IMG/VR virus record: IMGVR_UViG_3300009149_000063
Coordinates: 1-45,824 of that record
Strand: one strand, 5' to 3'
DNA from: a virus
Length of the DNA: 45,824 nucleotides
Below are positions 330 through 35,743 of the stretch, piece by piece. Made by a program: the position numbers and the translations under genes. How positions within the stretch are numbered: position 1 is the first letter of the stretch; the number at the start of each line of letters is the position of its first letter. Below the pieces are notes generated by a model, which had not been told where the DNA came from, made no database searches, and saw only the letters and a program-made list of their open reading frames with translations.

Positions 330-430
330 AGTCAGGTGGCGAAACTGGTAGACGCATTGCATAGTAGGTATTCTAGTTCCGAAACGTGAGGAGTGCTAGA
401 CTCATGTAGGTTCGAATCCTGCCCTGACTA
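330..430 (+). tRNA. Leu-type (class II) tRNA-like gene, anticodon unresolved
   Basis: The acceptor arms AGTCAGG (330-336) and CCTGACT (423-429) pair perfectly and are followed by a discriminator A. The D-arm (GCG AAACTGGTAGA CGC) is typical of tRNA-Leu and the T-arm (GTAGG TTCGAAT CCTGC) is good. About 50 bases separate the D- and T-arms, more than a normal anticodon arm plus long variable arm, and no convincing 5-bp anticodon stem with a 7-base loop is seen. It is either a tRNA-Leu with an enlarged middle region or a nonfunctional derivative. Confidence 0.5.
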
Positions 431-23644: not shown

Positions 23645-25089
23645 TGAAAAATTATAGAAAATTCTTATTTGAAAATAATAAAAATACATACATCGAATTA
23701 GTTCAATGGTTATCTACCAAGAACATTAGCGATAAAGTAAATTCTGATGATGATTCTTCGAGGTATTATGTAGAAAAAGAAACCACAAGTACAAAAACTA
23801 TAATCATATATGGTGAAACCCCAACAGATAGAGTTCTTCTAAAAAATGAACTATTAGATTTTTTAGAAAAAAATGAATTATCATTTACACACAATACCAA
23901 AATCGGAGGTACACATGGTAGAACTGAAATCAGCGAAGATACTAGTGGTATTGGGAAAAAACTACACATTCAATATAAATATTCTAGTAATAGTATAGAT
24001 ATACAAGAATTGTTAGTAGGTGCGCTAGTTTTAATAGGTGAATCACATAATGGTACATTGACATTAGTAGAATGTGACAACATTTTAAAAAAATGTAAAG
24101 GTACAATTACTAAAATCAAAGGAATAAAAGACCCCGAAAAGTTTTCTGAATTGACAAAGGGTAATTATTTAGATTTAGCACCTAGTATTTCATCTTGTAA
24201 TTCTATTTTAGAAATAATTAAAGCCGATGGTCAAATTATAAAAGATGCATATTGGACCGGTCAATCTTGGCATAAAGACATTAGATTCTTAAATCCACCA
24301 ATTGGTAATATTAAAGATTATAATTCATCTGATATCATATTTAAAACAAATGGTATTAATGGTGATGTTTTTTATGGTTTTTCCCTAAAAAAGAAAGGTA
24401 AACGAACAGATGCCGACCCGACGTTAATAAACAAAACAATTACGGGTAAAAGAAGTTTCTTGAAAGGTATAATTCCAGATAGTGAAATTAAAAAAATAGA
24501 AGATTCTAAAATAGAATTTTTCAAATTAGTATTGAAAGGTGAATTTAAAAATCTCAACCAATCTGTTATAAACAAAATGAAAGAAAATGAAATTAAAGAT
24601 TACATAAAGCAACTAAATAATGAAGATGTTGCTAAATATTTGAAATCTTCTGATAGTATATTTTTCAAAACTATTGGTGAAACACTACCTAAATATGCAA
24701 CTGATTTTATCAAAGGGTTTTTAGAGCTCATATTCAGGACTAAATTATCAAACACACTAGAAAGTACAGATTTTAAATTTAATTTGAACACAGGGATCGG
24801 TAGGGTTAATAAGAACTATGTTACAACAGAACCCGCAGAGAATAAAGATTTAGCAACAACTATAGAAGTATTAACAGATGTTTTCAATAGTAAATTAACT
24901 ATTGAAAAAACAAAAGGTAAACTACAAGCTTGGGATAAAGGTACAAAAGCAGCAAAAATATTTTATACTATATATTCGAATGCATTACCAATTCTAGACA
25001 TAGAAATAAGATATAAAGGTTCATTCACGGCAGAACCACAATTTCAAGCAACTGCAACACCTAATTTTAAAAACTTATTTAAAAATTAG
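23644..25089 (+). CDS. Large tagged protein, possible nuclease
   Basis: 481 aa, one-base overlap with the previous stop. N-terminus MKNYRKFLFEN is a tag variant (L-F-E). Around residues 228-262, SDIIFKTNG is followed by VFYGFSLKKKGKRTDADPTL, which resembles the D...(E/S)-x-K core of PD-(D/E)xK nucleases, where D and K bind metal; upstream ELLVGALVLIGE could hold the first acidic residue. This is suggestive only. It is the largest tagged protein. Its 3' end meets the large terminase gene tail to tail with a four-base overlap. Confidence 0.55.
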   Translation: MKNYRKFLFENNKNTYIELVQWLSTKNISDKVNSDDDSSRYYVEKETTSTKTIIIYGETPTDRVLLKNELLDFLEKNELSFTHNTKIGGTHGRTEISEDTSGIGKKLHIQYKYSSNSIDIQELLVGALVLIGESHNGTLTLVECDNILKKCKGTITKIKGIKDPEKFSELTKGNYLDLAPSISSCNSILEIIKADGQIIKDAYWTGQSWHKDIRFLNPPIGNIKDYNSSDIIFKTNGINGDVFYGFSLKKKGKRTDADPTLINKTITGKRSFLKGIIPDSEIKKIEDSKIEFFKLVLKGEFKNLNQSVINKMKENEIKDYIKQLNNEDVAKYLKSSDSIFFKTIGETLPKYATDFIKGFLELIFRTKLSNTLESTDFKFNLNTGIGRVNKNYVTTEPAENKDLATTIEVLTDVFNSKLTIEKTKGKLQAWDKGTKAAKIFYTIYSNALPILDIEIRYKGSFTAEPQFQATATPNFKNLFKN

Positions 25090-26963
25090 AACCAAATATC
25101 ACTTGCATCAAAATTAGTATCATTCGTACCTAAGTTGTTGAAATCGTCTATTAAGAAATCAGTACTTTCGTCTAAACTAACACCATTTTCCATTAATGTA
25201 TTGATATGTTGTTTGTTTTCATCATCTAACATTTCGAATGCCTCTGCCACTAAATCAATAAATATAACATCTCTAAATATTTCTACAAGATTAACACATG
25301 CCATAACAGTATCATCATGTCCAGTACTTGCTTCGTAAGATCCAGATTTATTCCTATTAAAATGATTAAATTCTTCACATGTCCACTTGTCAAATATAAC
25401 AATTGTCCTATTATCTATTAAATTCTTCACCTCTGCACAATTTCTCGGTTTAGTTTCTTTATCTTGTCTTAAACCAATTTTTTTCTTTATTGCACCTTTT
25501 CTATGATATGTTTTCAAATATACAGAATCATCATAAAGTGAACCCCCATATAAATGTTTCATCTTTTCATCGAAAAAAGATCCATATGTATTCCATTCTA
25601 AAACTATTCTAACTTTGTCTATATCAATAAATTTATTACTAAAAACGAAATTATATACTAGTTTAGCAAAATCTTCTATACCTACTAAATTATCTCTAAA
25701 TATTCCTATTTGCTCCAAATAAAAATGTTTCTCCAATTGAAAAACTTCGTTTTCTAAAACTGTTATATCCCTTTCTATCTTAGGACTAACTTTGAAAATC
25801 TGCATAACCGTATAATCCCTACCAACACCCTCTGCCAAATCTATACTAAAAAATAGTGTATCCCTTTTTAAATTTTCTATATCATACGATTTTTTAAATA
25901 ATAAATTTTCATAATTCAAATTAAAATTATCTAAATATTCAAATTCGTGATGAACAAAATCGGTAATGTTAGATTTTAAATAATTCAATTGTTTTGCCGA
26001 CAACAACAATAAATCACTTCTTTGAAACGCACAGGCAAATTGTTCATTAAATGCATCTGATCCCATAATAGCAATCTGTTGATCTGCCCAAGATTCATCT
26101 CTCCCCGGAACATCCCACCAAGGTATCATCATATGACTAAACCCATTCCTACCTTCTACTGCTTGTTGATATAATTCCTGAAACAATTCATATCCATTGG
26201 GTGTACTTGTCATTATTAACTTAGAATTTGGATCAGCCGCCATTACTGGATAAATATTGTCCCAAAAACTACGTTGTATGTTTTGTCTTACGTGAGCAAA
26301 CTCATCCAAAAACAACAAGTGTATGGTAAATCCAATCGCAGCCTTATCTGTAGTTGTAGTCGCCAATATCCTAGAATTAGCATCTGTCATCAAACTAAAC
26401 ATGTTCCAAGAAAATAAACCGGGTTTTAACCAAAAAGGTAGATGGGAAATGATAGACTTGACCTTTTCTAAAATCTCTTTACTTGTATCCCCTTTATTTG
26501 AGGCTATCATAATATTTTTATCTGGGTGAAAAATCAAAAACCAAGTTAAAAAGATTCCAGCAACCACAGTATTGTGACTTAGAATATCATTTGTATAATA
26601 TCTATGTTCAAGAGTATCAATAGTTAGATCAAACATACCAACAGAAACGGGGTATGATGTAATAGAAACTACCCTAGAGGCACCTTGCTTAGTATATAAA
26701 TAATCATCACAAGTTAAATCTTTAACATATTTTTCTTTTAATTCGTGTGTGAACACTATGTGATTATCTGCACATTCTAAAAATAATCCATTTTCTAATA
26801 AAAGTGTATAAACTTTATATGGTTGTGTTGTGTGTAATTTTGTTGCCTTGACCCAACCATTGTCAGATTCAACTTCTATATCAATATCAAAACTGTTTAT
26901 TAATTTCTTATCAACATCATTTTCATCTAAATCTATATTTCTATATTGATACTTTTCTATCAT
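25086..26963 (-). CDS. Large terminase, C-terminal part with C-intein
   Basis: 625 aa from ATG 26963 (MIEKYQYRNIDL); the frame extends 15 codons further to 27008. Residues 1-131 are the C-terminal part of an intein: a Hint sheet with LECADNHIVF (block B-like Asn-His), FDLTIDTLEHRYYTND (block F) and LSHN (block G, ending in Asn131). Thr132 then starts the C-extein TVVAGIFLTWFL, completing Walker A after GSRQIGK. The extein has Walker B LLFLDEFAHV, motif III TSTPNG, and RNase H-like nuclease acidic residues in FFSIDLAEG, VLEWNTYG and GHDDTV. Spliced to the product of 28881-29444 it would give about 632 aa, normal for a T4-like terminase. Confidence 0.92.
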   Translation of the reverse strand: MIEKYQYRNIDLDENDVDKKLINSFDIDIEVESDNGWVKATKLHTTQPYKVYTLLLENGLFLECADNHIVFTHELKEKYVKDLTCDDYLYTKQGASRVVSITSYPVSVGMFDLTIDTLEHRYYTNDILSHNTVVAGIFLTWFLIFHPDKNIMIASNKGDTSKEILEKVKSIISHLPFWLKPGLFSWNMFSLMTDANSRILATTTTDKAAIGFTIHLLFLDEFAHVRQNIQRSFWDNIYPVMAADPNSKLIMTSTPNGYELFQELYQQAVEGRNGFSHMMIPWWDVPGRDESWADQQIAIMGSDAFNEQFACAFQRSDLLLLSAKQLNYLKSNITDFVHHEFEYLDNFNLNYENLLFKKSYDIENLKRDTLFFSIDLAEGVGRDYTVMQIFKVSPKIERDITVLENEVFQLEKHFYLEQIGIFRDNLVGIEDFAKLVYNFVFSNKFIDIDKVRIVLEWNTYGSFFDEKMKHLYGGSLYDDSVYLKTYHRKGAIKKKIGLRQDKETKPRNCAEVKNLIDNRTIVIFDKWTCEEFNHFNRNKSGSYEASTGHDDTVMACVNLVEIFRDVIFIDLVAEAFEMLDDENKQHINTLMENGVSLDESTDFLIDDFNNLGTNDTNFDASDIWF

Positions 26964-26992
26964 TTGTATCAAAAATAGAATAAGTAATTTTA
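26932..26992. repeat. 61-bp direct repeat, copy in the C-intein gene
   Basis: Matches 27418-27478 at 60 of 61 positions. It spans the start codon and first codons of the terminase C-half (MIEKYQYRNI) and its upstream bases. Confidence 0.9.
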
Positions 26993-27377
26993 TGTTGTTT
27001 TTTAGCATTTAAATATATATTTTAACTATAAATTACCACTCGAAAAATAATTAGAAACTAACTATTTTTTCAAATTTGTAGTTTAATGTATAGTATTTAA
27101 ACAATCTAAATGTGATTATTTTCTAAAAACACATTAACATTTTCATTAGTCACTTCCTTAAATTCAGTTTTTCTAGCGTATAATTTTTTCGATTTTCTTA
27201 TTTATAATTATTATAAATATCACATTTGTTGAAAAATAATTAAAATAAATAAAATATTTTTTTTGTACGTGCATGTAATAATTGTATTAGTTCTCCGGGG
27301 GAAATATATATACTCTTAGTACTCTTAGGGAATTTGTTTTTAGTAGAAAGAATAAAGACTATTAGCCAAGATAATAG

Positions 27378-27403
27378 AAAAGGTTCTTTGTCCTTTGATA
27401 TAT
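27378..27403. repeat. 26-bp direct repeat with the N-intein end
   Basis: Identical to 28934-28959, which encodes the IKGQRTF region near the end of the terminase N-half; here the reading frame is different. Confidence 0.85.
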
Positions 27404-27417
27404 TATTTTCATATAAT

Positions 27418-27478
27418 TCTATATTTCTATATTGATACTTTTCTGTCATTTGTATCAAAAATAGAATAAGTAATTTTA
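27418..27478. repeat. 61-bp direct repeat, scar copy
   Basis: Partner of 26932-26992 with one mismatch (G for A at about 27445). It encodes MTEKYQYRNIE on the minus strand before diverging. Confidence 0.9.
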
Positions 27479-27638
27479 GGTTTTCCTCTTGTCATATTTA
27501 ACGATGAAAGTAAAAGTACAAAAACTGGGATTTAGAGCTTTTACCTGAAATATATGAATAGTTATTTAGAACCATTATGAATTATATTTTATTTGTCGAG
27601 AATCTACTATTATGTTACACTTTTTGATTCAATAGTAT

Positions 27639-28862
27639 ATGAATGAACTCAAAGAAGAAATAAAATCAGCAAATAGTTTAATAGGTAACAAAAAACTTAA
27701 CACTAAAATCAAAGAAGCGACTGCGGATTTAGATTGTAAAAGCATTAAAGAAAGAACATTTTGTGTTTTAAATGATGTTACAAAAATACCTAAATGTTCT
27801 TGTTGCTCAAAACAAGTAAGATTCGACAAATTAAAAAACGAATATAATAGATTTTGCTCATTGTCTTGTTATAGTATGTGGAGAAAAGAAAATAAACTGT
27901 TTAGAACTAATACTACAAACGAAAAACTACTTAAAGATAAAGATAACTATGTTCAATGTAAAGTCTGTGGAAGCGCTGTAAAATCAATAGCATCCCACGT
28001 AAAACTAAGTGGTGATGATATTCACAAAAACTGGGATTTAGAACGATATAAAAAAGAATTTCCAAATGAACCTATTATAGCAAAGAATACAAGTAAAATT
28101 CTGTCTGAAAAAAGTAAAGGTGAAAACAATGCTATGCATAGTAGTAAAACTACTAAAGAATTTAGACAATCAATATCACCATTTTCTATTGAATTTTACA
28201 AACGCAAATTTTCAAACGAATCTTTAGAACAACAAGAAAAAAGATTAAAAGAATTCATAAGTACTGTTGATTATGATAGTAGATTAACAGAAAGCCAATT
28301 AGATTATTGGATTGAAAAATGTAATGGTGATGTAGAACAAGCAAAAGAACTATACAAAGAAAGACAATCAACTTTTACAAAAGAAAAATGTATCAAGAAA
28401 TACGGTGAAGAAAAAGGCTTAGAAGTTTATAATGATAGACAAGAAAAGTGGAGTATAATAATGGAAGAAAAATACCAAAATGGTGAATATCATAGAAGTA
28501 ATGGTAGTAATATTAGTTCATTAAATTATGAAATAGTAGAATATTTACCAAAAACTAAATATTGTTTAGAAAATGAATGGTTCATACACACAGGTAAACG
28601 AATATATTATTATGATTATAAATTAGGAAACAAAATTATTGAATTTAATGGTGATTATTGGCATTGTAACCCAGAAATATATGAGAGTACTTTTTACAAT
28701 AAATCAAAACAAATGTATGCACAAGAAATATGGAATTTTGAAGTTATTAAATTACAAGCAGCAAAAGATAATGGTTTTGAGGTTTTAACGATTTGGGAAT
28801 CAGATTTTAAGAAACACAAAAAAGAAACCTTACAACGATGTGTGGATTTCCTAAAAGAATAA
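27639..28862 (+). CDS. Vsr-like homing endonuclease inside terminase
   Basis: 407 aa on the strand opposite the terminase. N-terminal zinc-finger-like clusters (CSCCSKQ...FCSLSC and CKVCG...SHVKLS), a NUMOD-type segment (KGENNAMHSSKTT), a K-x-Y-G-E-x-x-G-L-E-V-Y repeat, and a C-terminal very-short-patch-repair-like nuclease: YYYDYKLGNKIIEFNGDYWH with CNP, then EVLTIWESDF. This is the domain type of endonucleases found between halves of split-intein genes in metagenomic phage sequences. It probably cuts intein-free terminase alleles so that the whole fractured locus is copied in. Ends in a bidirectional terminator. Confidence 0.85.
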   Translation: MNELKEEIKSANSLIGNKKLNTKIKEATADLDCKSIKERTFCVLNDVTKIPKCSCCSKQVRFDKLKNEYNRFCSLSCYSMWRKENKLFRTNTTNEKLLKDKDNYVQCKVCGSAVKSIASHVKLSGDDIHKNWDLERYKKEFPNEPIIAKNTSKILSEKSKGENNAMHSSKTTKEFRQSISPFSIEFYKRKFSNESLEQQEKRLKEFISTVDYDSRLTESQLDYWIEKCNGDVEQAKELYKERQSTFTKEKCIKKYGEEKGLEVYNDRQEKWSIIMEEKYQNGEYHRSNGSNISSLNYEIVEYLPKTKYCLENEWFIHTGKRIYYYDYKLGNKIIEFNGDYWHCNPEIYESTFYNKSKQMYAQEIWNFEVIKLQAAKDNGFEVLTIWESDFKKHKKETLQRCVDFLKE

Positions 28863-28886
28863 AATAGGACAAAAATTGTCCTATTT
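28862..28886. terminator. Bidirectional terminator between convergent genes
   Basis: AAATAGGACAA (28862-28872) pairs perfectly with TTGTCCTATTT (28876-28886) around AAA. It serves both the endonuclease (plus) and the terminase N-half (minus), overlapping the stop of the latter. Confidence 0.85.
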
Positions 28887-29444
28887 ATCTAATTTACTAT
28901 ATGACCAATATAACCCGTATTTCAAATAATCTAAAAAGGTTCTTTGTCCTTTGATATATCTGAACCACAATTTATAAATAGGAATAGTACCAATACCTTT
29001 GACATTTACGTAAGTGCTTGATAATGAGCACTTTCCAATTTGTCTGCTGCCCACTAAAACATTATTTTTTTTTGTCTGATAGTTCAATAGCATTTGTTCT
29101 TGATAAGGATACAATTCTATATGACCTATACCTTTTGGTGTCATCAGTTGAACATATTTATTAGCAAAGTGTAATATGTCTTTTTTACATTTCTTAAACT
29201 CTACTAGTTCTTCTGGTGTCATTTGAAAAGCAACTCTACCTTTTCTAAGTTGTGGGTTTTTGTCAAAAAAGGGATTTTTTGCTTTGTTTAGGTCTAGACC
29301 ATAATTGTCAAATTTGTCTATTAGTTTATCTACTAGTTCAGTTGTCCATATTTCAGAATCGAATTCTGGCTCTTCTATGCTACTAAATTCTTCACCGAAT
29401 GATGGTATGAATTCTTTTTGTAGGAATCTTTGTTGTTTTGCCAT
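28881..29444 (-). CDS. Large terminase, N-terminal part with N-intein
   Basis: 187 aa. Residues 1-138 are the terminase N-terminus: the adenine-binding region IELYPYQEQML and Walker A NVLVGSRQIGK, which stops at the Lys. Cys139 starts the N-intein (CSLSSTYVNVKGIGTIPIYK...), a block-A-like stretch with no block B, and only 49 residues remain to the stop. The first 25 or so residues match the layout of the short N-inteins of atypically split terminase inteins (AceL-TerL type). The protein cannot hydrolyse ATP until trans-splicing with the 25086-26963 product restores GSRQIGKT. A terminator overlaps its stop, so read-through into the C-half is unlikely. Confidence 0.92.
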   Translation of the reverse strand: MAKQQRFLQKEFIPSFGEEFSSIEEPEFDSEIWTTELVDKLIDKFDNYGLDLNKAKNPFFDKNPQLRKGRVAFQMTPEELVEFKKCKKDILHFANKYVQLMTPKGIGHIELYPYQEQMLLNYQTKKNNVLVGSRQIGKCSLSSTYVNVKGIGTIPIYKLWFRYIKGQRTFLDYLKYGLYWSYSKLDK

Positions 29445-30959: not shown

Positions 30960-31208
30960 ATGATTAGTAAAGAAGACGAAAAAAAGGTATTAGAATTTTC
31001 TAAATTATATAGAAAACGAGCAGACAAAGTTAATGGGTATAAAGATCAATTACAAGAATTACAAGAAAGGATTACTAAGGAATTAGAAGACATGAAAGAA
31101 ATGAGGGAAAGTGAATTATCATTTTTAGATGAGTTAAGAAACAAGTATGATTCGACACCGGAAGAGATAATTCAATTAATACAAAAAATAATTACAATAA
31201 ATGAATAA
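30960..31208 (+). CDS. Small coiled-coil protein
   Basis: 82 aa, almost entirely a charged coiled coil (KDQLQELQERITKELEDMKE). Lies between the nuclease and NrdA genes with an eight-base overlap into NrdA. Role unknown. Confidence 0.6.
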   Translation: MISKEDEKKVLEFSKLYRKRADKVNGYKDQLQELQERITKELEDMKEMRESELSFLDELRNKYDSTPEEIIQLIQKIITINE

Positions 31209-33462
31209 AATTAATATTATCAAGCGTAATGGTACACTAGAAGAATTGAATATTGAAAAAATTAATAAAGTTTTAATATGGGCAACTAAAGATGTTTCTG
31301 ATGTTAGTGCATCAGAAATAGCTATGAATGCTAATTTGCAATTTTATGATGGTATATCAAGTTCAGATATTCAACAAGTTCTTATTAGTTCTTGTGTAGA
31401 TTTAATAAGTGAAGATTCTCCAAATTATGACTTAGTTGCTGGTAAACTTTATAATATGTATTTGAGAAAAAAAGTTTTCAATACATTTAATTATTTACCT
31501 ACACTTTATCATCACATACAGTCTATGGTAAAAAAAGGTTGGTATACTAAAGAATTATTAGAAAAATACACAAAAGAAGAAATTGATGATATTGGTAATA
31601 AAATTTTAAACCATAAAAAAGATTGGGACTATACATATGCATCTATTCGGCAAATGAGCGACAAATATCTAATAAAAAATAGAAAAAGTGGTGAAATTTT
31701 TGAAACCCCACAATTTATGTATATTGCTATTGCTATGTGTGTATGTGCAGGAATAGAAGATGATAAAAAAAGATTTCAAGATATCAAATCAAAATATAAC
31801 GATTATTCAGATTTTTATATATCTTTATCAACACCAGTTGTTTCTGGTATTAGAACAAATACAACACAATATAGTTCTTGTACACTTATAGAATGTGGAG
31901 ATTCTATTAATTCTATCAATGCAACATCTAATGCAATTGTTAGTTACACCGCAAAAAGAGCAGGTATTGGTATGAATGTGGGACGAATAAGAGCAGAAGG
32001 TGATTTAATTAGAAATGGTGAAGTTGTTCATACTGGTTTAGTTCCCTTTCTAAAGACTTTTGAAACAAATACTAAGGCAGTTCATCAAAATGGATTAAGA
32101 GATGGTGGCGGCACTGCACACGTACCTATATGGCATAAACAAATCGAGGATGTAATAGTTTTAAAAAACAACAAAGGTTCTGATGAAAAAAGGGTTAGAA
32201 AACTGGATTATAGTATACAGTTTTCTAAAATATTTTGGAAAAGATTCTTAGATAATGGTATGATTACATTATTTTCCCCAAATGATGTACCTGATTTATA
32301 TGACAATTTTGGATTAGAAGCCTTTGATAAACTTTATGAAAAATACGAAGCAGATTCTACTATATCTAAAGAATTTGTAAGTGCTAGGGAATTGATTAGT
32401 GATATTATACAGGAACGTTTTGAAACCGGTAGAATTTATATTATGAATATAGATAATGCTAATTCTCATAGTACTTTCGATACAGAAAATGGAAATAGAA
32501 TTTCTATGAGTAATTTATGCCAGGAGGTTTTACTCCCAGTGAGCCCCTTGAATCACGAGGACGATGGTAAAATGATTTTAAGGTATGTCCTCATAGAAAG
32601 TGATAAAGTTGAGCAATTTAGAGAATGGTACAAATCAAACGATATTTATATCACAGGAGATAGTTTTGGATCTTTAACTGAATTATTACATCCTTGTACC
32701 GGTAGGACAGATTTTGTAATTAGCACTAGTCAACATGCACCTAATGGTTTTGATGCGATCCCAGTAAAAGTTGAAGTAGTTTATGGTGACAAACCGGCTG
32801 AGATTGCATTGTGTACACTAGCAGCAGTTAATCTTGGTAAGGTAAGAGACTATAGGGAATTAGAAAGAATTACAAAGAATATTGTTGACACTTTAGAGTG
32901 GGTAATAGATAAACAAGAATATCCTATGTTTGCTGCGTTAAAAATGTTAAAACGTAGGAGTTTAGGTATAGGAGTTACTAATTTTGCGTATTGGATGGCA
33001 AAAAGAGGTTTCAATTACGAAGACCCATCAGCATTAGAAGAAATAGATCGTTTATTTGAACACTTTACATATTATTGTTTAAAAGCATCAAATGGGGTTG
33101 CAAAAGAAAAAGGTGCTTGTGAATGGTTTCATAGAACAAGAATGTCAAAAGGTGAATTGATTATTGATAATTATAATAAGAATGTTGATAAATTAGTTAA
33201 AAGAAAATTAGATTTAGATTGGGATGTTTTAAGAAAGGATATTAAACAATATGGTATGAGAAATTCTACCCTTATGTGTTTTATGCCAGTAGAAAGTTGT
33301 AATTTTTTTAAGACTAAAATAGAAGTTGATAATCCTATTTTTAGTATTGAATTAGAGGATGGTACAATCAAAGAGTTTTATTATAATGATGAAGTGTATC
33401 TTAATAATGGTGACTATAAATTAGTACAAGAAATAGTAGAAGGTGATGATATTATTATTTAG
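31201..33462 (+). CDS. nrdA: NrdA (class I RNR alpha), N-part with N-intein
   Basis: 753 aa. Residues 1-90 are an ATP-cone (IIKRNGTLEELNIEKIN). Catalytic residues: Cys227 in YSSCTL, Asn438-x-Cys440-x-Glu442 in NLCQE, and Cys538 in EIALCTL. Cys440 and Cys538 are 98 residues apart, against 23 in E. coli NrdA (Cys439, Cys462), so about 75 extra residues are inserted beside the active site. The N-extein ends MPVES; then a 54-residue N-intein starts with Cys700 (CNFFKTKIEV...) and has a Hint-like FSIELEDG...EGDDI segment. The rest of NrdA is at 34853. The enzyme reduces NDPs to dNDPs with NrdB (39668). Confidence 0.93.
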   Translation: MNKINIIKRNGTLEELNIEKINKVLIWATKDVSDVSASEIAMNANLQFYDGISSSDIQQVLISSCVDLISEDSPNYDLVAGKLYNMYLRKKVFNTFNYLPTLYHHIQSMVKKGWYTKELLEKYTKEEIDDIGNKILNHKKDWDYTYASIRQMSDKYLIKNRKSGEIFETPQFMYIAIAMCVCAGIEDDKKRFQDIKSKYNDYSDFYISLSTPVVSGIRTNTTQYSSCTLIECGDSINSINATSNAIVSYTAKRAGIGMNVGRIRAEGDLIRNGEVVHTGLVPFLKTFETNTKAVHQNGLRDGGGTAHVPIWHKQIEDVIVLKNNKGSDEKRVRKLDYSIQFSKIFWKRFLDNGMITLFSPNDVPDLYDNFGLEAFDKLYEKYEADSTISKEFVSARELISDIIQERFETGRIYIMNIDNANSHSTFDTENGNRISMSNLCQEVLLPVSPLNHEDDGKMILRYVLIESDKVEQFREWYKSNDIYITGDSFGSLTELLHPCTGRTDFVISTSQHAPNGFDAIPVKVEVVYGDKPAEIALCTLAAVNLGKVRDYRELERITKNIVDTLEWVIDKQEYPMFAALKMLKRRSLGIGVTNFAYWMAKRGFNYEDPSALEEIDRLFEHFTYYCLKASNGVAKEKGACEWFHRTRMSKGELIIDNYNKNVDKLVKRKLDLDWDVLRKDIKQYGMRNSTLMCFMPVESCNFFKTKIEVDNPIFSIELEDGTIKEFYYNDEVYLNNGDYKLVQEIVEGDDIII

Positions 33463-33542
33463 AATAATAAAATGAGTTCTACTGACATAAAAGAAAATAA
33501 TTTGATAACTTTATTGAGTAAATATACAAAACAATAATACTT

Positions 33543-34856
33543 ATGGAAATAAAGTTATCAAATTATTTACAAGAATATAAGAACAAACCAAATTGTGTTA
33601 TATCTTTTGTAAGAAACCTGAGTTTTTTTAATAAATTAGATTTTCTAACAGATCAGCAGTGGAAAGATATATGTGATTATTATATCAACTATACTGAAAA
33701 GTCTGTTGGTAAGTCTAATAAAATTATTTCAGTTAAAGGTGGGACAGCAATTAGAAGAATTATTACAGCATATTACAATTCTACTAGGTGGGTTTATATA
33801 TCAAAATATAATATGGTTATGTTTGTCAATTGGCGTATGCAAAATACCAAAGTACCTAATGCATCAATTGAGTTTATTTCAGCACTATTTAATGGTAAAT
33901 CTGAACATATTGAAAAATATCAATTAGATAAGAAGTCTAATCGAAAATCACAATATGACCCAGAATATGTATCTAAACGAGATGGTATTTCTTTAGAAGA
34001 AGCTAAAAATCAAATAGAAAAGTTCAAATCAGACAAGGCAACAACTAAAGAAAATTTCATTAAAAAACACGGTAAGAAAAGGGGGGAAGAAATGTGGGAA
34101 AGACACAAAACAGTTTCAAGACACTCTGAATCCATTTATATTGAAAAGTATGGTGAGGTTGAAGGTAAAAAGAAATGGCAAGAATATTTAGTTGCATTTA
34201 AAAAAGAAAATAGGCGGTGTATTGTATATTATACAAGTCGTGGTTATAGTAAAGACGATGCAATAGAAGAAGTTTCTAAATATCAAAAAGAAAATTCTGG
34301 TACACATCCTGATTATTATAGGAATCTTGGATATAGTGAAGATGAAATAAAAGAAATATTATCAAAAATTAATTCAAAGAAAGATGCGGCATCGTTAAAG
34401 TTTTATATTAATAAATTTGGTGAAAAGTTAGGAAAAGAAAAATATTACGATAATTGTGATAGATTATTTGAAATAGGGTCGAAAGGACTAGGAACAGGTG
34501 GTGTTTCTAAAATATCATTAGACTTATTTGAGAATTTAGGGGTTGATTACAACAGAGAGCTACCACTAAAAGACAAAACTAAAAACCGGAGTTATTTTTA
34601 TGACTTCAATATTGACAATAAAATAATTGAATTTAATGGTGATTACTGGCATTGTAACCCAATTAAATATAGTGCAGAGGATTTAGTAAAATATCCAGGG
34701 GGGTCTTTTCTAGCAAAAGACAAGTGGAAACAAGATAGACAAAAAATAGAATTTGCCAAATCACAAGGATATGATGTTTTAGTAGTTTGGGAATATGATT
34801 ATAAAAACAATAAAGAAGCAACTATTAATAAAATAAAAAAATTTTTAGAAACATGA
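33543..34856 (+). CDS. Vsr-like homing endonuclease inside NrdA
   Basis: 437 aa, same strand as nrdA. Contains three K-x-G/H-G-x-x-x-G repeats (KKHGKKRGEEMWER, EKYGEVEGKKKWQEY, NKFGEKLGKEKYYDN), probably DNA-recognition modules, and a C-terminal nuclease: IIEFNGDYWHCNP, then YDVLVVWEYDYK. The catalytic segment is nearly identical to that of the terminase endonuclease, so the two are homologous. Its stop overlaps the start of the NrdA C-part (ATGA), so both are co-translated. A 21-codon ORF at 33472 between it and NrdA-N is probably spurious. Confidence 0.87.
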   Translation: MEIKLSNYLQEYKNKPNCVISFVRNLSFFNKLDFLTDQQWKDICDYYINYTEKSVGKSNKIISVKGGTAIRRIITAYYNSTRWVYISKYNMVMFVNWRMQNTKVPNASIEFISALFNGKSEHIEKYQLDKKSNRKSQYDPEYVSKRDGISLEEAKNQIEKFKSDKATTKENFIKKHGKKRGEEMWERHKTVSRHSESIYIEKYGEVEGKKKWQEYLVAFKKENRRCIVYYTSRGYSKDDAIEEVSKYQKENSGTHPDYYRNLGYSEDEIKEILSKINSKKDAASLKFYINKFGEKLGKEKYYDNCDRLFEIGSKGLGTGGVSKISLDLFENLGVDYNRELPLKDKTKNRSYFYDFNIDNKIIEFNGDYWHCNPIKYSAEDLVKYPGGSFLAKDKWKQDRQKIEFAKSQGYDVLVVWEYDYKNNKEATINKIKKFLET

Positions 34857-35743
34857 AAGTTATCAATATAACAAAACGAGAAAACACTTCTATTAAATCA
34901 ATAGAGGATATTAATTTAGAACAAGGTTTAGATATGGAAATCTTACACAAAGAAAATAAACAACAATGGATTAACTTTGAAAAACCATTTTACGTACCTA
35001 CACTAGAAGGTAACAAAAAAGTTGATAAAATTTGGTTTAATGGTATTACTAAAATTAACGAAATAGTATTTGATGATGGTAATAGTTATAAAATGACCAA
35101 TAATCATAAACTTTTACTTTCTAATGGTGAGTGGGTCGAATCCAAAAAACTAAGAGTGGGTGACAAGATTCAAGATAAATCTCAAAATAAAACACATACT
35201 ATTACTGAAATAAAATGGCAATCTGAAGAAGTACCTACTTACGATATGGAAGTTTCAGATGTTCATCATTATTTCTTCGACAATGGGGTTGTTTCCCATA
35301 ATTCATCCGTTATTAGTAATAGTACAAATGGTTTAGAACCACCTAGAACACCTATACAAGTTAAGACTAGTAAAGCTGGTGCAATTAAAATGGTTATACC
35401 GGGATATTCTAGATATAAAAACAAATATACATACGCATTTGATATGAGTAGTAACGAAGGTATTATTAATATACACAGTGTTATTCAAAAGTGGACAGAT
35501 CAAGCTATTTCTTGTAATCACTATTATGACCCTAAGAAATTTGAAGATGGTAGAGTACCAATGGATATAGTAGCCAAAGATTTATTACAATTTTATTCAT
35601 ATGGCGGTAAACAATTATACTATGCCAATACATTTGATGGGAAAACCGAAGATCACACGGATAAAATGAATGAAAAACTAGAAGACTTACCAACAGAAGA
35701 CAACCCTTTGGAAAGTGGATGTGGAGATGCGTGTGTTTTATAA
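34853..35743 (+). CDS. nrdA: NrdA C-part with C-intein
   Basis: 296 aa. Residues 1-150 are the C-intein: a long N-terminal extension, the Hint segment IVFDDGNSYKMTNNHKLLLS (block B-like Asn-x-His), block F VPTYDMEVSDVHHYFF and block G GVVSHN with terminal Asn150. Ser151 begins the C-extein SSVISNSTNGLEPPR, which joins N-extein MPVES to recreate the conserved loop of RNR (E. coli MPSETSSQISNATNG). The radical-transfer pair YY in LYYANTFDG and a C-terminal Cys pair (CGDAC) are present. Spliced NrdA would be about 845 aa. Followed by a terminator. Confidence 0.92.
   Translation: MKVINITKRENTSIKSIEDINLEQGLDMEILHKENKQQWINFEKPFYVPTLEGNKKVDKIWFNGITKINEIVFDDGNSYKMTNNHKLLLSNGEWVESKKLRVGDKIQDKSQNKTHTITEIKWQSEEVPTYDMEVSDVHHYFFDNGVVSHNSSVISNSTNGLEPPRTPIQVKTSKAGAIKMVIPGYSRYKNKYTYAFDMSSNEGIINIHSVIQKWTDQAISCNHYYDPKKFEDGRVPMDIVAKDLLQFYSYGGKQLYYANTFDGKTEDHTDKMNEKLEDLPTEDNPLESGCGDACVL

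What the first reader, a model, noticed from the sequence alone, without database searches (positions are those of the whole stretch)
28881..29027. Atypically short N-intein in terminase
Only 49 residues follow Cys139, carrying a block-A-like stretch; the block-B Asn-His motif is in the C-half. That puts the split far upstream of the usual position, like AceL-TerL-type inteins. Such short N-inteins are rare and useful.
Basis: partly seen in the sequence, partly recalled or inferred. Interest (0 to 1): 0.65.

Follow-up and report, generated by a model that had tools for sequence, protein, structure and literature searches.

The report
Terminase intein split by homing gene
A phage DNA-packaging gene is broken in two inside a self-splicing protein element, at an unusually early position where a DNA-cutting selfish gene sits, and relatives with and without the break suggest that such selfish genes cause it.

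Summary
In detail: the terminase (TerL) N-half, 28881-29444(-), ends in a 49-residue N-intein starting at Cys139; the Asn-His block B is in the C-half, 25086-27008(-). Walker A is cut GSRQIGK|T, with Cys1, HN and Thr+1. The split zone is atypical, but the fragment is longer than AceL-TerL (25), Cat (30) or GOS-TerL (37): it has an extra conserved helix-like end, and the C-half starts with a matching one. By profile it is no nearer to Cat than to VidaL or gp41-1.

It belongs to a clade of Walker-A TerL inteins of large phages (20 tree rows: 18 split, 2 contiguous). The split lies at the tip of a predicted helical hairpin. In 15 of 16 tabulated split loci a large ORF, mostly of one EDxHD/Vsr-like homing-endonuclease family, lies between the halves. 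One split allele (L102) is a near copy of a contiguous one (L106) except for about 66+72 bp around the endonuclease gene, which match another lineage (L105): a co-conversion footprint.

Best reading: homing-gene invasion at a non-canonical site fractured a contiguous mini-intein; the helices probably help the halves reassociate. Splicing itself is untested. New variant of a known kind.

The parts
29031..29444 (-). TerL N-extein, 138 aa, ending at the Walker A lysine (GSRQIGK)
28884..29030 (-). N-intein, 49 aa, Cys1 to Lys49; stop TAG 28881-28883
28884..28940 (-). last 19 codons of the N-intein: predicted helix 1 of the hairpin by homology to L105
28862..28886 (.). terminator-like inverted repeat read on both strands, between the convergent N-half and endonuclease gene
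27639..28862 (+). homing endonuclease gene (407 aa), opposite strand to terL; EDxHD/Vsr-like family (weak)
27378..27536 (-). composite of three fragments copied from the locus (19 bp of endonuclease gene, 81 bp of C-intein start, 26 bp of N-intein end)
26571..27008 (-). C-intein, 146 aa, ends HN before Thr+1
26937..27008 (-). first 24 codons of the C-intein: predicted helix 2 of the hairpin by homology to L105
26751..26780 (-). block B (LECADNHIVF)
25086..26570 (-). TerL C-extein with stop (TVVAG ... ; Walker B, nuclease region)

Best explanation
This is a split mini-intein in the Walker A loop of a T4-like phage terminase. The two halves are made from separate genes (shown by the sequence). 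The short N-intein docks on the large C-intein, helped by a helix that each half contributes (inferred), and protein trans-splicing (inferred) joins GSRQIGK to TVVAG and so restores the P-loop. The split arose when a free-standing homing-endonuclease gene inserted at the tip of a helical hairpin that contiguous relatives carry between block A/N2 and the next strand; it ended one reading frame and separated the other (inferred from relatives). The endonuclease gene spreads between phages by homing into contiguous alleles, carrying short flanks along (footprint shown in L102, cutting inferred).
For: Contiguous (L105, L106) and split alleles exist in one clade with the break at one place. In 15 of 16 tabulated split loci an ORF of at least 324 aa lies between the halves, 14 of one family. 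Co-conversion footprint: L102 follows L105 at 30 of 31 and 21 of 25 discriminating sites next to the endonuclease gene, but L106 at 112 of 116 and 194 of 207 outside. In L107/L109 the C-intein has dS 0.144 against 1.16 in both exteins. Hairpin predicted at 38-51 and 54-72 of L105; intein fold matches. The splicing residues are all kept. Intein dN/dS 0.11-0.42, exteins 0.04-0.15, in the pairs computed. The endonuclease profile matches I-Bth0305I best.
Against: No splicing or cutting was tested. Block A in the model is of low confidence (under 50), so docking of the N-part is not shown. L122 is split with no endonuclease ORF (185-bp gap), and LR756501, L110 and L119 have halves about 11-12 kb apart, so other events also occur. 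The window's endonuclease is on the opposite strand, unlike 14 of 15. In the clade, some C-termini deviate (LNLN|T, SSQ|T). The nuclease match is weak (E 0.023; Foldseek 0.08). Direction of change L106 to L102 is by parsimony.
Confidence: 0.75

Rival explanations
1. Plain member of the AceL/GOS/Cat TerL group: the short N-half is inherited from that group and the extra residues at its end are an irrelevant tail, so about 25 residues suffice.
For: Same protein, similar split zone; the CatN end KISMEDLYQRLA resembles TIPIYKLWFRYIK here; CatC is among the best solved matches. GOS-TerL 37-aa N-fragment could be cut to 27 (passage of PMC11766414).
Against: +1 is Thr, not Cys; VidaL and gp41-1 match as well as CatC; the extra end is conserved in the clade and present in contiguous relatives.
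Confidence: 0.12
2. The split came first (a stop or frameshift, or genome rearrangement) and endonuclease genes settled later in the tolerated gap; contiguous L105 and L106 are later fusions.
For: L122 has no endonuclease; LR756501, L110 and L119 have distant halves; the two contiguous rows sit within the split rows and deep order is unresolved; Delftia phage PhiW-14 is split with a tiny gap.
Against: Contiguous Walker-A inteins are common outside the clade (VAP7, VPALA, Kuja, ZQ1); the footprint in L102 shows entry of the endonuclease gene with flanks into an L106-like allele.
Confidence: 0.2
3. TerL in this phage is a broken gene (decay in progress), not spliced.
For: The composite scar 27378-27536 shows that the locus was rearranged; truncated TerL-like ORFs sit beside the split gene in two relatives.
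Against: Both halves are open and constrained (extein dN/dS 0.07-0.08 against L081); no other TerL was seen among the window ORFs, though the window may be a fragment.
Confidence: 0.04

Closest known systems
AceL-TerL / GOS-TerL / Cat atypically split inteins
   Same: TerL host, short N-fragment, block B in the C-fragment, similar split zone
   Different: Thr+1 instead of Cys+1; N-fragment 49 against 25/37/30; extra helix-like end and a matching start of the C-fragment; endonuclease gene between the halves here (not known to me for AceL)
Fractured genes with split inteins (Dassa et al. 2009, known only through citing papers)
   Same: Two half genes with a free-standing endonuclease gene between them
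   Different: Break near the N-end of the intein, in a helical hairpin, not at the canonical place (that those are canonical is recalled)
Contiguous Walker-A TerL inteins of Ackermannviridae (VAP7, Kuja, ZQ1) and Vibrio phage VPALA
   Same: Same insertion point GK|T and 36-40% identity over the C-part
   Different: Contiguous; the stretch between N2 and the next strand is not the paired-helix sequence
VidaL and gp41-1 inteins
   Same: Closest solved structures by profile and fold
   Different: Different hosts and split points (recalled)
EDxHD homing endonucleases (I-Bth0305I)
   Same: Best profile and fold match among solved structures for the endonuclease
   Different: Weak E-values; the window protein has additional N-terminal regions of unknown role

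Membership tests
split intein, class 1 type | Nucleophile at position 1, block B His, C2 Asp/His, penultimate His, terminal Asn, nucleophile at +1 | tested here: met
   Cys1, ADNH, MFDLTID..EHRYY, HN, Thr+1
split intein, class 1 type | Halves on separate reading frames that together complete the host protein | tested here: met
   (continuous intein-less relatives L002-L007)
split intein, class 1 type | Trans-splicing activity | not testable with these tools
   no assay
AceL/GOS/Cat TerL inteins | N-fragment without block B, split after the N2-like segment | tested here: met
AceL/GOS/Cat TerL inteins | Cys at +1 (same insertion point) | tested here: not met
   Thr+1 here; Cys+1 in the table of PMC11766414
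AceL/GOS/Cat TerL inteins | Clearly closer to CatC than to other inteins | tested here: not met
   VidaL 1.2e-10, gp41-1 2.7e-10, CatC 5.3e-10; native AceL and GOS C-parts were not compared
fractured genes (split intein plus endonuclease gene) | Free-standing endonuclease gene between the intein halves | tested here: met
   window, and 15 of 16 tabulated split loci
EDxHD homing endonuclease | Similarity of sequence and fold to I-Bth0305I or Vsr | tested here: inconclusive
   I-Bth0305I best but E 0.023 and Foldseek E 0.08, probability 0.99
EDxHD homing endonuclease | Cuts the unoccupied allele | not testable with these tools
   the footprint in L102 is indirect

The most novel reading that the evidence does not exclude
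Natural atypically split inteins are made, and repeatedly re-made, by free-standing homing-endonuclease genes that invade contiguous mini-inteins at an N-proximal hairpin, a site where a fused endonuclease domain is not known. As a separate gene the endonuclease adds nothing bulky to the intein and so avoids the clash with the exteins that was proposed to forbid such sites, and the two hairpin helices act as a ready-made clamp that lets the break be tolerated.
Probability: 0.5. Interest if true: 0.65.

Novelty: new variant of a known kind. Interest (0 to 1): 0.5.

Why it matters
How contiguous inteins become split, and why endonuclease domains inside inteins sit at one site only, are open questions. 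Beyer et al. (PMC6801210, passages) write that if free-standing endonucleases invaded at random, inteins with endonucleases at other sites should exist, and explain their absence by a clash with the exteins. Here one phage family offers contiguous and split alleles of one intein, an endonuclease gene at an N-proximal site and a conversion footprint, so the step can be tested directly. The paired helices might also give N-fragments that bind tightly, of use in protein ligation.

Tried and rejected
Readthrough of the TAG stop: only nine further codons follow before the next stop (read from the sequence), so the N-intein is not longer by that route. A known RNA element at the locus: Rfam at gathering thresholds shows only two tRNAs in the window. 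The 72-aa ORF 27240-27458(-) is not a second intein gene: it is largely the composite repeat read in frame. Bacterial hosts or prophages: a scan of genome contigs with the C-intein alignment gave no confirmed relative, so the host is not known; relatives of the N-half among named phages include phages of Chryseobacterium, Flavobacterium and Tenacibaculum.

N-fragments aligned badly to L105 in MAFFT, so the structure job used the two contiguous rows, the N-fragment of L102 and the C-fragments (alignment A6); block A in the model is therefore of low confidence. The 49-residue N-intein alone gave only a chance match among solved structures. In one search the entries called N-extein for L107 and L109 include about eight intein residues, and one N-intein dS could not be computed. 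Near-duplicate loci (for example L101, L104, L108, L116-L118, L120) were left out of the table and the tree; L115 and L124 are near copies that stayed in the table. The print was cut in the middle; searches give the loci again. Literature: the searches listed no description of this intein clade or of such a footprint; the library lacks most subscription papers, and Dassa 2009 and Bachmann and Mootz 2015 are not held.

Full report
What is there. The window carries a T4-like terminase gene in two pieces on the minus strand. The N-half (28881-29444) is 187 aa, ends its extein at the Walker A lysine (GSRQIGK) and continues as a 49-residue N-intein that stops at TAG. The C-half (25086-27008) starts with a 146-residue C-intein ending ILSHN before TVVAG. 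Block B (LECADNHIVF) is in the C-half. Pfam sees Terminase_6N and, below its cut-off, Intein_splicing; PHROGs sees terminase in both halves. Between them lies a gene on the opposite strand (27639-28862) that matches PHROG 22677 (unknown function) and 3339 (homing endonuclease). It is convergent with the N-half across a terminator-like inverted repeat.

Relatives. Contig L001 is the same phage (7,490 bp at 99.96%). L081 is a second phage, about 70% identical, with the same split: N-intein 47 aa, C-intein 72% identical. L002-L007 have both parts of TerL in one run without an intein, so the insertion point is clear. Among named phage records the C-intein finds 318 at E up to 0.01. Of these I fetched nine: the 735-kb and 462-kb uncultured phage genomes LR756501 and LR756500 are split with the same ends; VAP7, VPALA, Kuja and ZQ1 have contiguous inteins at the same point; PhiW-14, SCTP-2 and VmeM-32 show a C-intein that starts its own frame. 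A scan of viral contigs with an alignment of four C-inteins confirmed 29 loci of 124 candidate stretches.

Anatomy of the clade. An N-half was found in 29 of 33 sources examined, near copies included. Where the Walker A motif was recognised, split N-inteins run 47-69 aa and end in a segment such as TFLEKIKIKLYKLLTHLD; the C-intein starts with a segment such as MLKKILKNIIYFLIEKIEKIEYKN. In L105 and L106 the intein is contiguous (192 aa) and the two segments follow each other directly. AlphaFold2 of L105 (mean pLDDT 72.6, pTM 0.66; residues 1-37 under 50) gives a helix at 38-51 and a helix at 54-72, then the strands of an intein. Foldseek and VIA-align return inteins, VidaL at Z 13.0 first. In L102, the split counterpart, the break falls at the tip of this hairpin.

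How the split arose. Of 16 split loci tabulated, 15 have an ORF of at least 324 aa between the halves; L122 has only a 185-bp gap. Fourteen of the 15 are of one family; L081 has a different, larger endonuclease-like gene, plus a remnant of the last 23 residues of the window's gene in the window's orientation. The gene is on the terL strand in 14 of 15; only the window's is reversed. A profile of 14 proteins, 13 from terL loci and one from the window's nrdA locus, finds I-Bth0305I first (E 0.023), then Vsr; Foldseek of the modelled window protein (pLDDT 72.8, pTM 0.33) also puts I-Bth0305I first (E 0.08). I-Bth0305I exemplifies the EDxHD family (passages of PMC3943268). The strongest evidence is L102 against L106 and L105. 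L102 and L106 are near copies (98% and 96% over the two aligned stretches). Yet in the last 66 columns left and the first 72 columns right of the endonuclease gene, L102 follows L105 at 30 of 31 and 21 of 25 discriminating sites, while outside it follows L106 at 112 of 116 and 194 of 207. That is what co-conversion during homing leaves behind. In L107 and L109 the C-intein has dS 0.144 against 1.16 in both exteins, so the intein moved recently between more diverged terminases. The tree holds the hairpin clade together (20 rows, 18 split and 2 contiguous, support 86/79); its deep order is unresolved.

Is it working? Both halves keep the residues of an active intein, and Walker A is complete only after joining. 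In the five pairs computed, dN/dS is 0.11-0.42 for intein parts and 0.04-0.15 for exteins (dS is near saturation in several, one N-intein value failed). Selection to keep both halves is thus likely; splicing is inferred.

Against known systems. The N-fragment is longer than those of AceL-TerL, Cat and GOS-TerL, and +1 is Thr (passages of PMC11766414). The printed end of CatN (KISMEDLYQRLA) resembles TIPIYKLWFRYIK here, so some 20 residues are extra. The paired helices at the new ends are the distinctive trait. Endonuclease domains fused in inteins are said to sit at one conserved site, and insertions at its symmetry mate N35 were proposed to clash with exteins (passages of PMC6801210). Here a separate gene uses a more N-terminal site; by numbering that I recall it lies before the N35 turn, so it is not N35 itself.

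Results against the reading. L122 shows that the split persists without an endonuclease gene. LR756501 and two relatives (L110, L119) have halves about 11-12 kb apart; in L113 no N-half was found on its 13-kb contig. The nuclease identity rests on weak scores. The direction of change between L106 and L102 is by parsimony. Some clade members end LNLN|T, SLN|T or SSQ|T, which may weaken splicing there. The composite scar at 27378-27536, three locus fragments out of order, is unexplained; it is also in L001 and no such composite was found in 13 relatives checked.

Noticed in passing
window 31201-35743 (+): NrdA is fractured too: 54-aa N-intein (33298-33459), a second gene of the same endonuclease family (33543-34856) and a 150-aa C-intein (34853-35302) before SS. 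The N-intein found no match among phage records. In relative L128 the halves are 60 bp apart with no endonuclease; L129-L132 have no intein.
   Followed up: partly
window 27378-27536: Composite of three fragments of the locus: 19 bp of the endonuclease gene, 81 bp (94%) of the C-intein start, 26 bp (100%) of the N-intein end, with C before N, opposite to genome order. Perhaps a scar of break repair or tandem duplication.
   Followed up: partly
L089 (LR756501), L110, L113, L126/L090 (LR756500): C-inteins of the clade end LNLN|T, SLN|T or SSQ|T instead of SHN|T, so the penultimate His or terminal Asn is lost.
   Followed up: no
L090 336-1151 and L122 4331-5284: Truncated TerL-like ORFs without intein sit beside the fractured terL; in L090 the Walker A lysine is lost (SSRQMGIS).
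   Followed up: no
L089, L110, L119: TerL halves lie about 11-12 kb apart in three large-phage sequences, so the fracture can be followed by separation.
   Followed up: partly
L092 (Delftia phage PhiW-14), L095 (Salicola phage SCTP-2), L096 (Vibrio phage vB_VmeM-32): The annotated TerL starts at or near the C-intein, so the N-half is not annotated with it; SCTP-2 TerL also ends in a second N-intein and VmeM-32 has a second contiguous intein downstream.
   Followed up: no
L109 against L107: Endonuclease genes nearly identical in their first part but diverged in the last third, where L109 resembles L103: the catalytic end seems to be swapped.
   Followed up: no
window 330-430 (+): Rfam tRNA match spread over 101 bases that ARAGORN does not call; a long arm or an insertion.
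   Followed up: no
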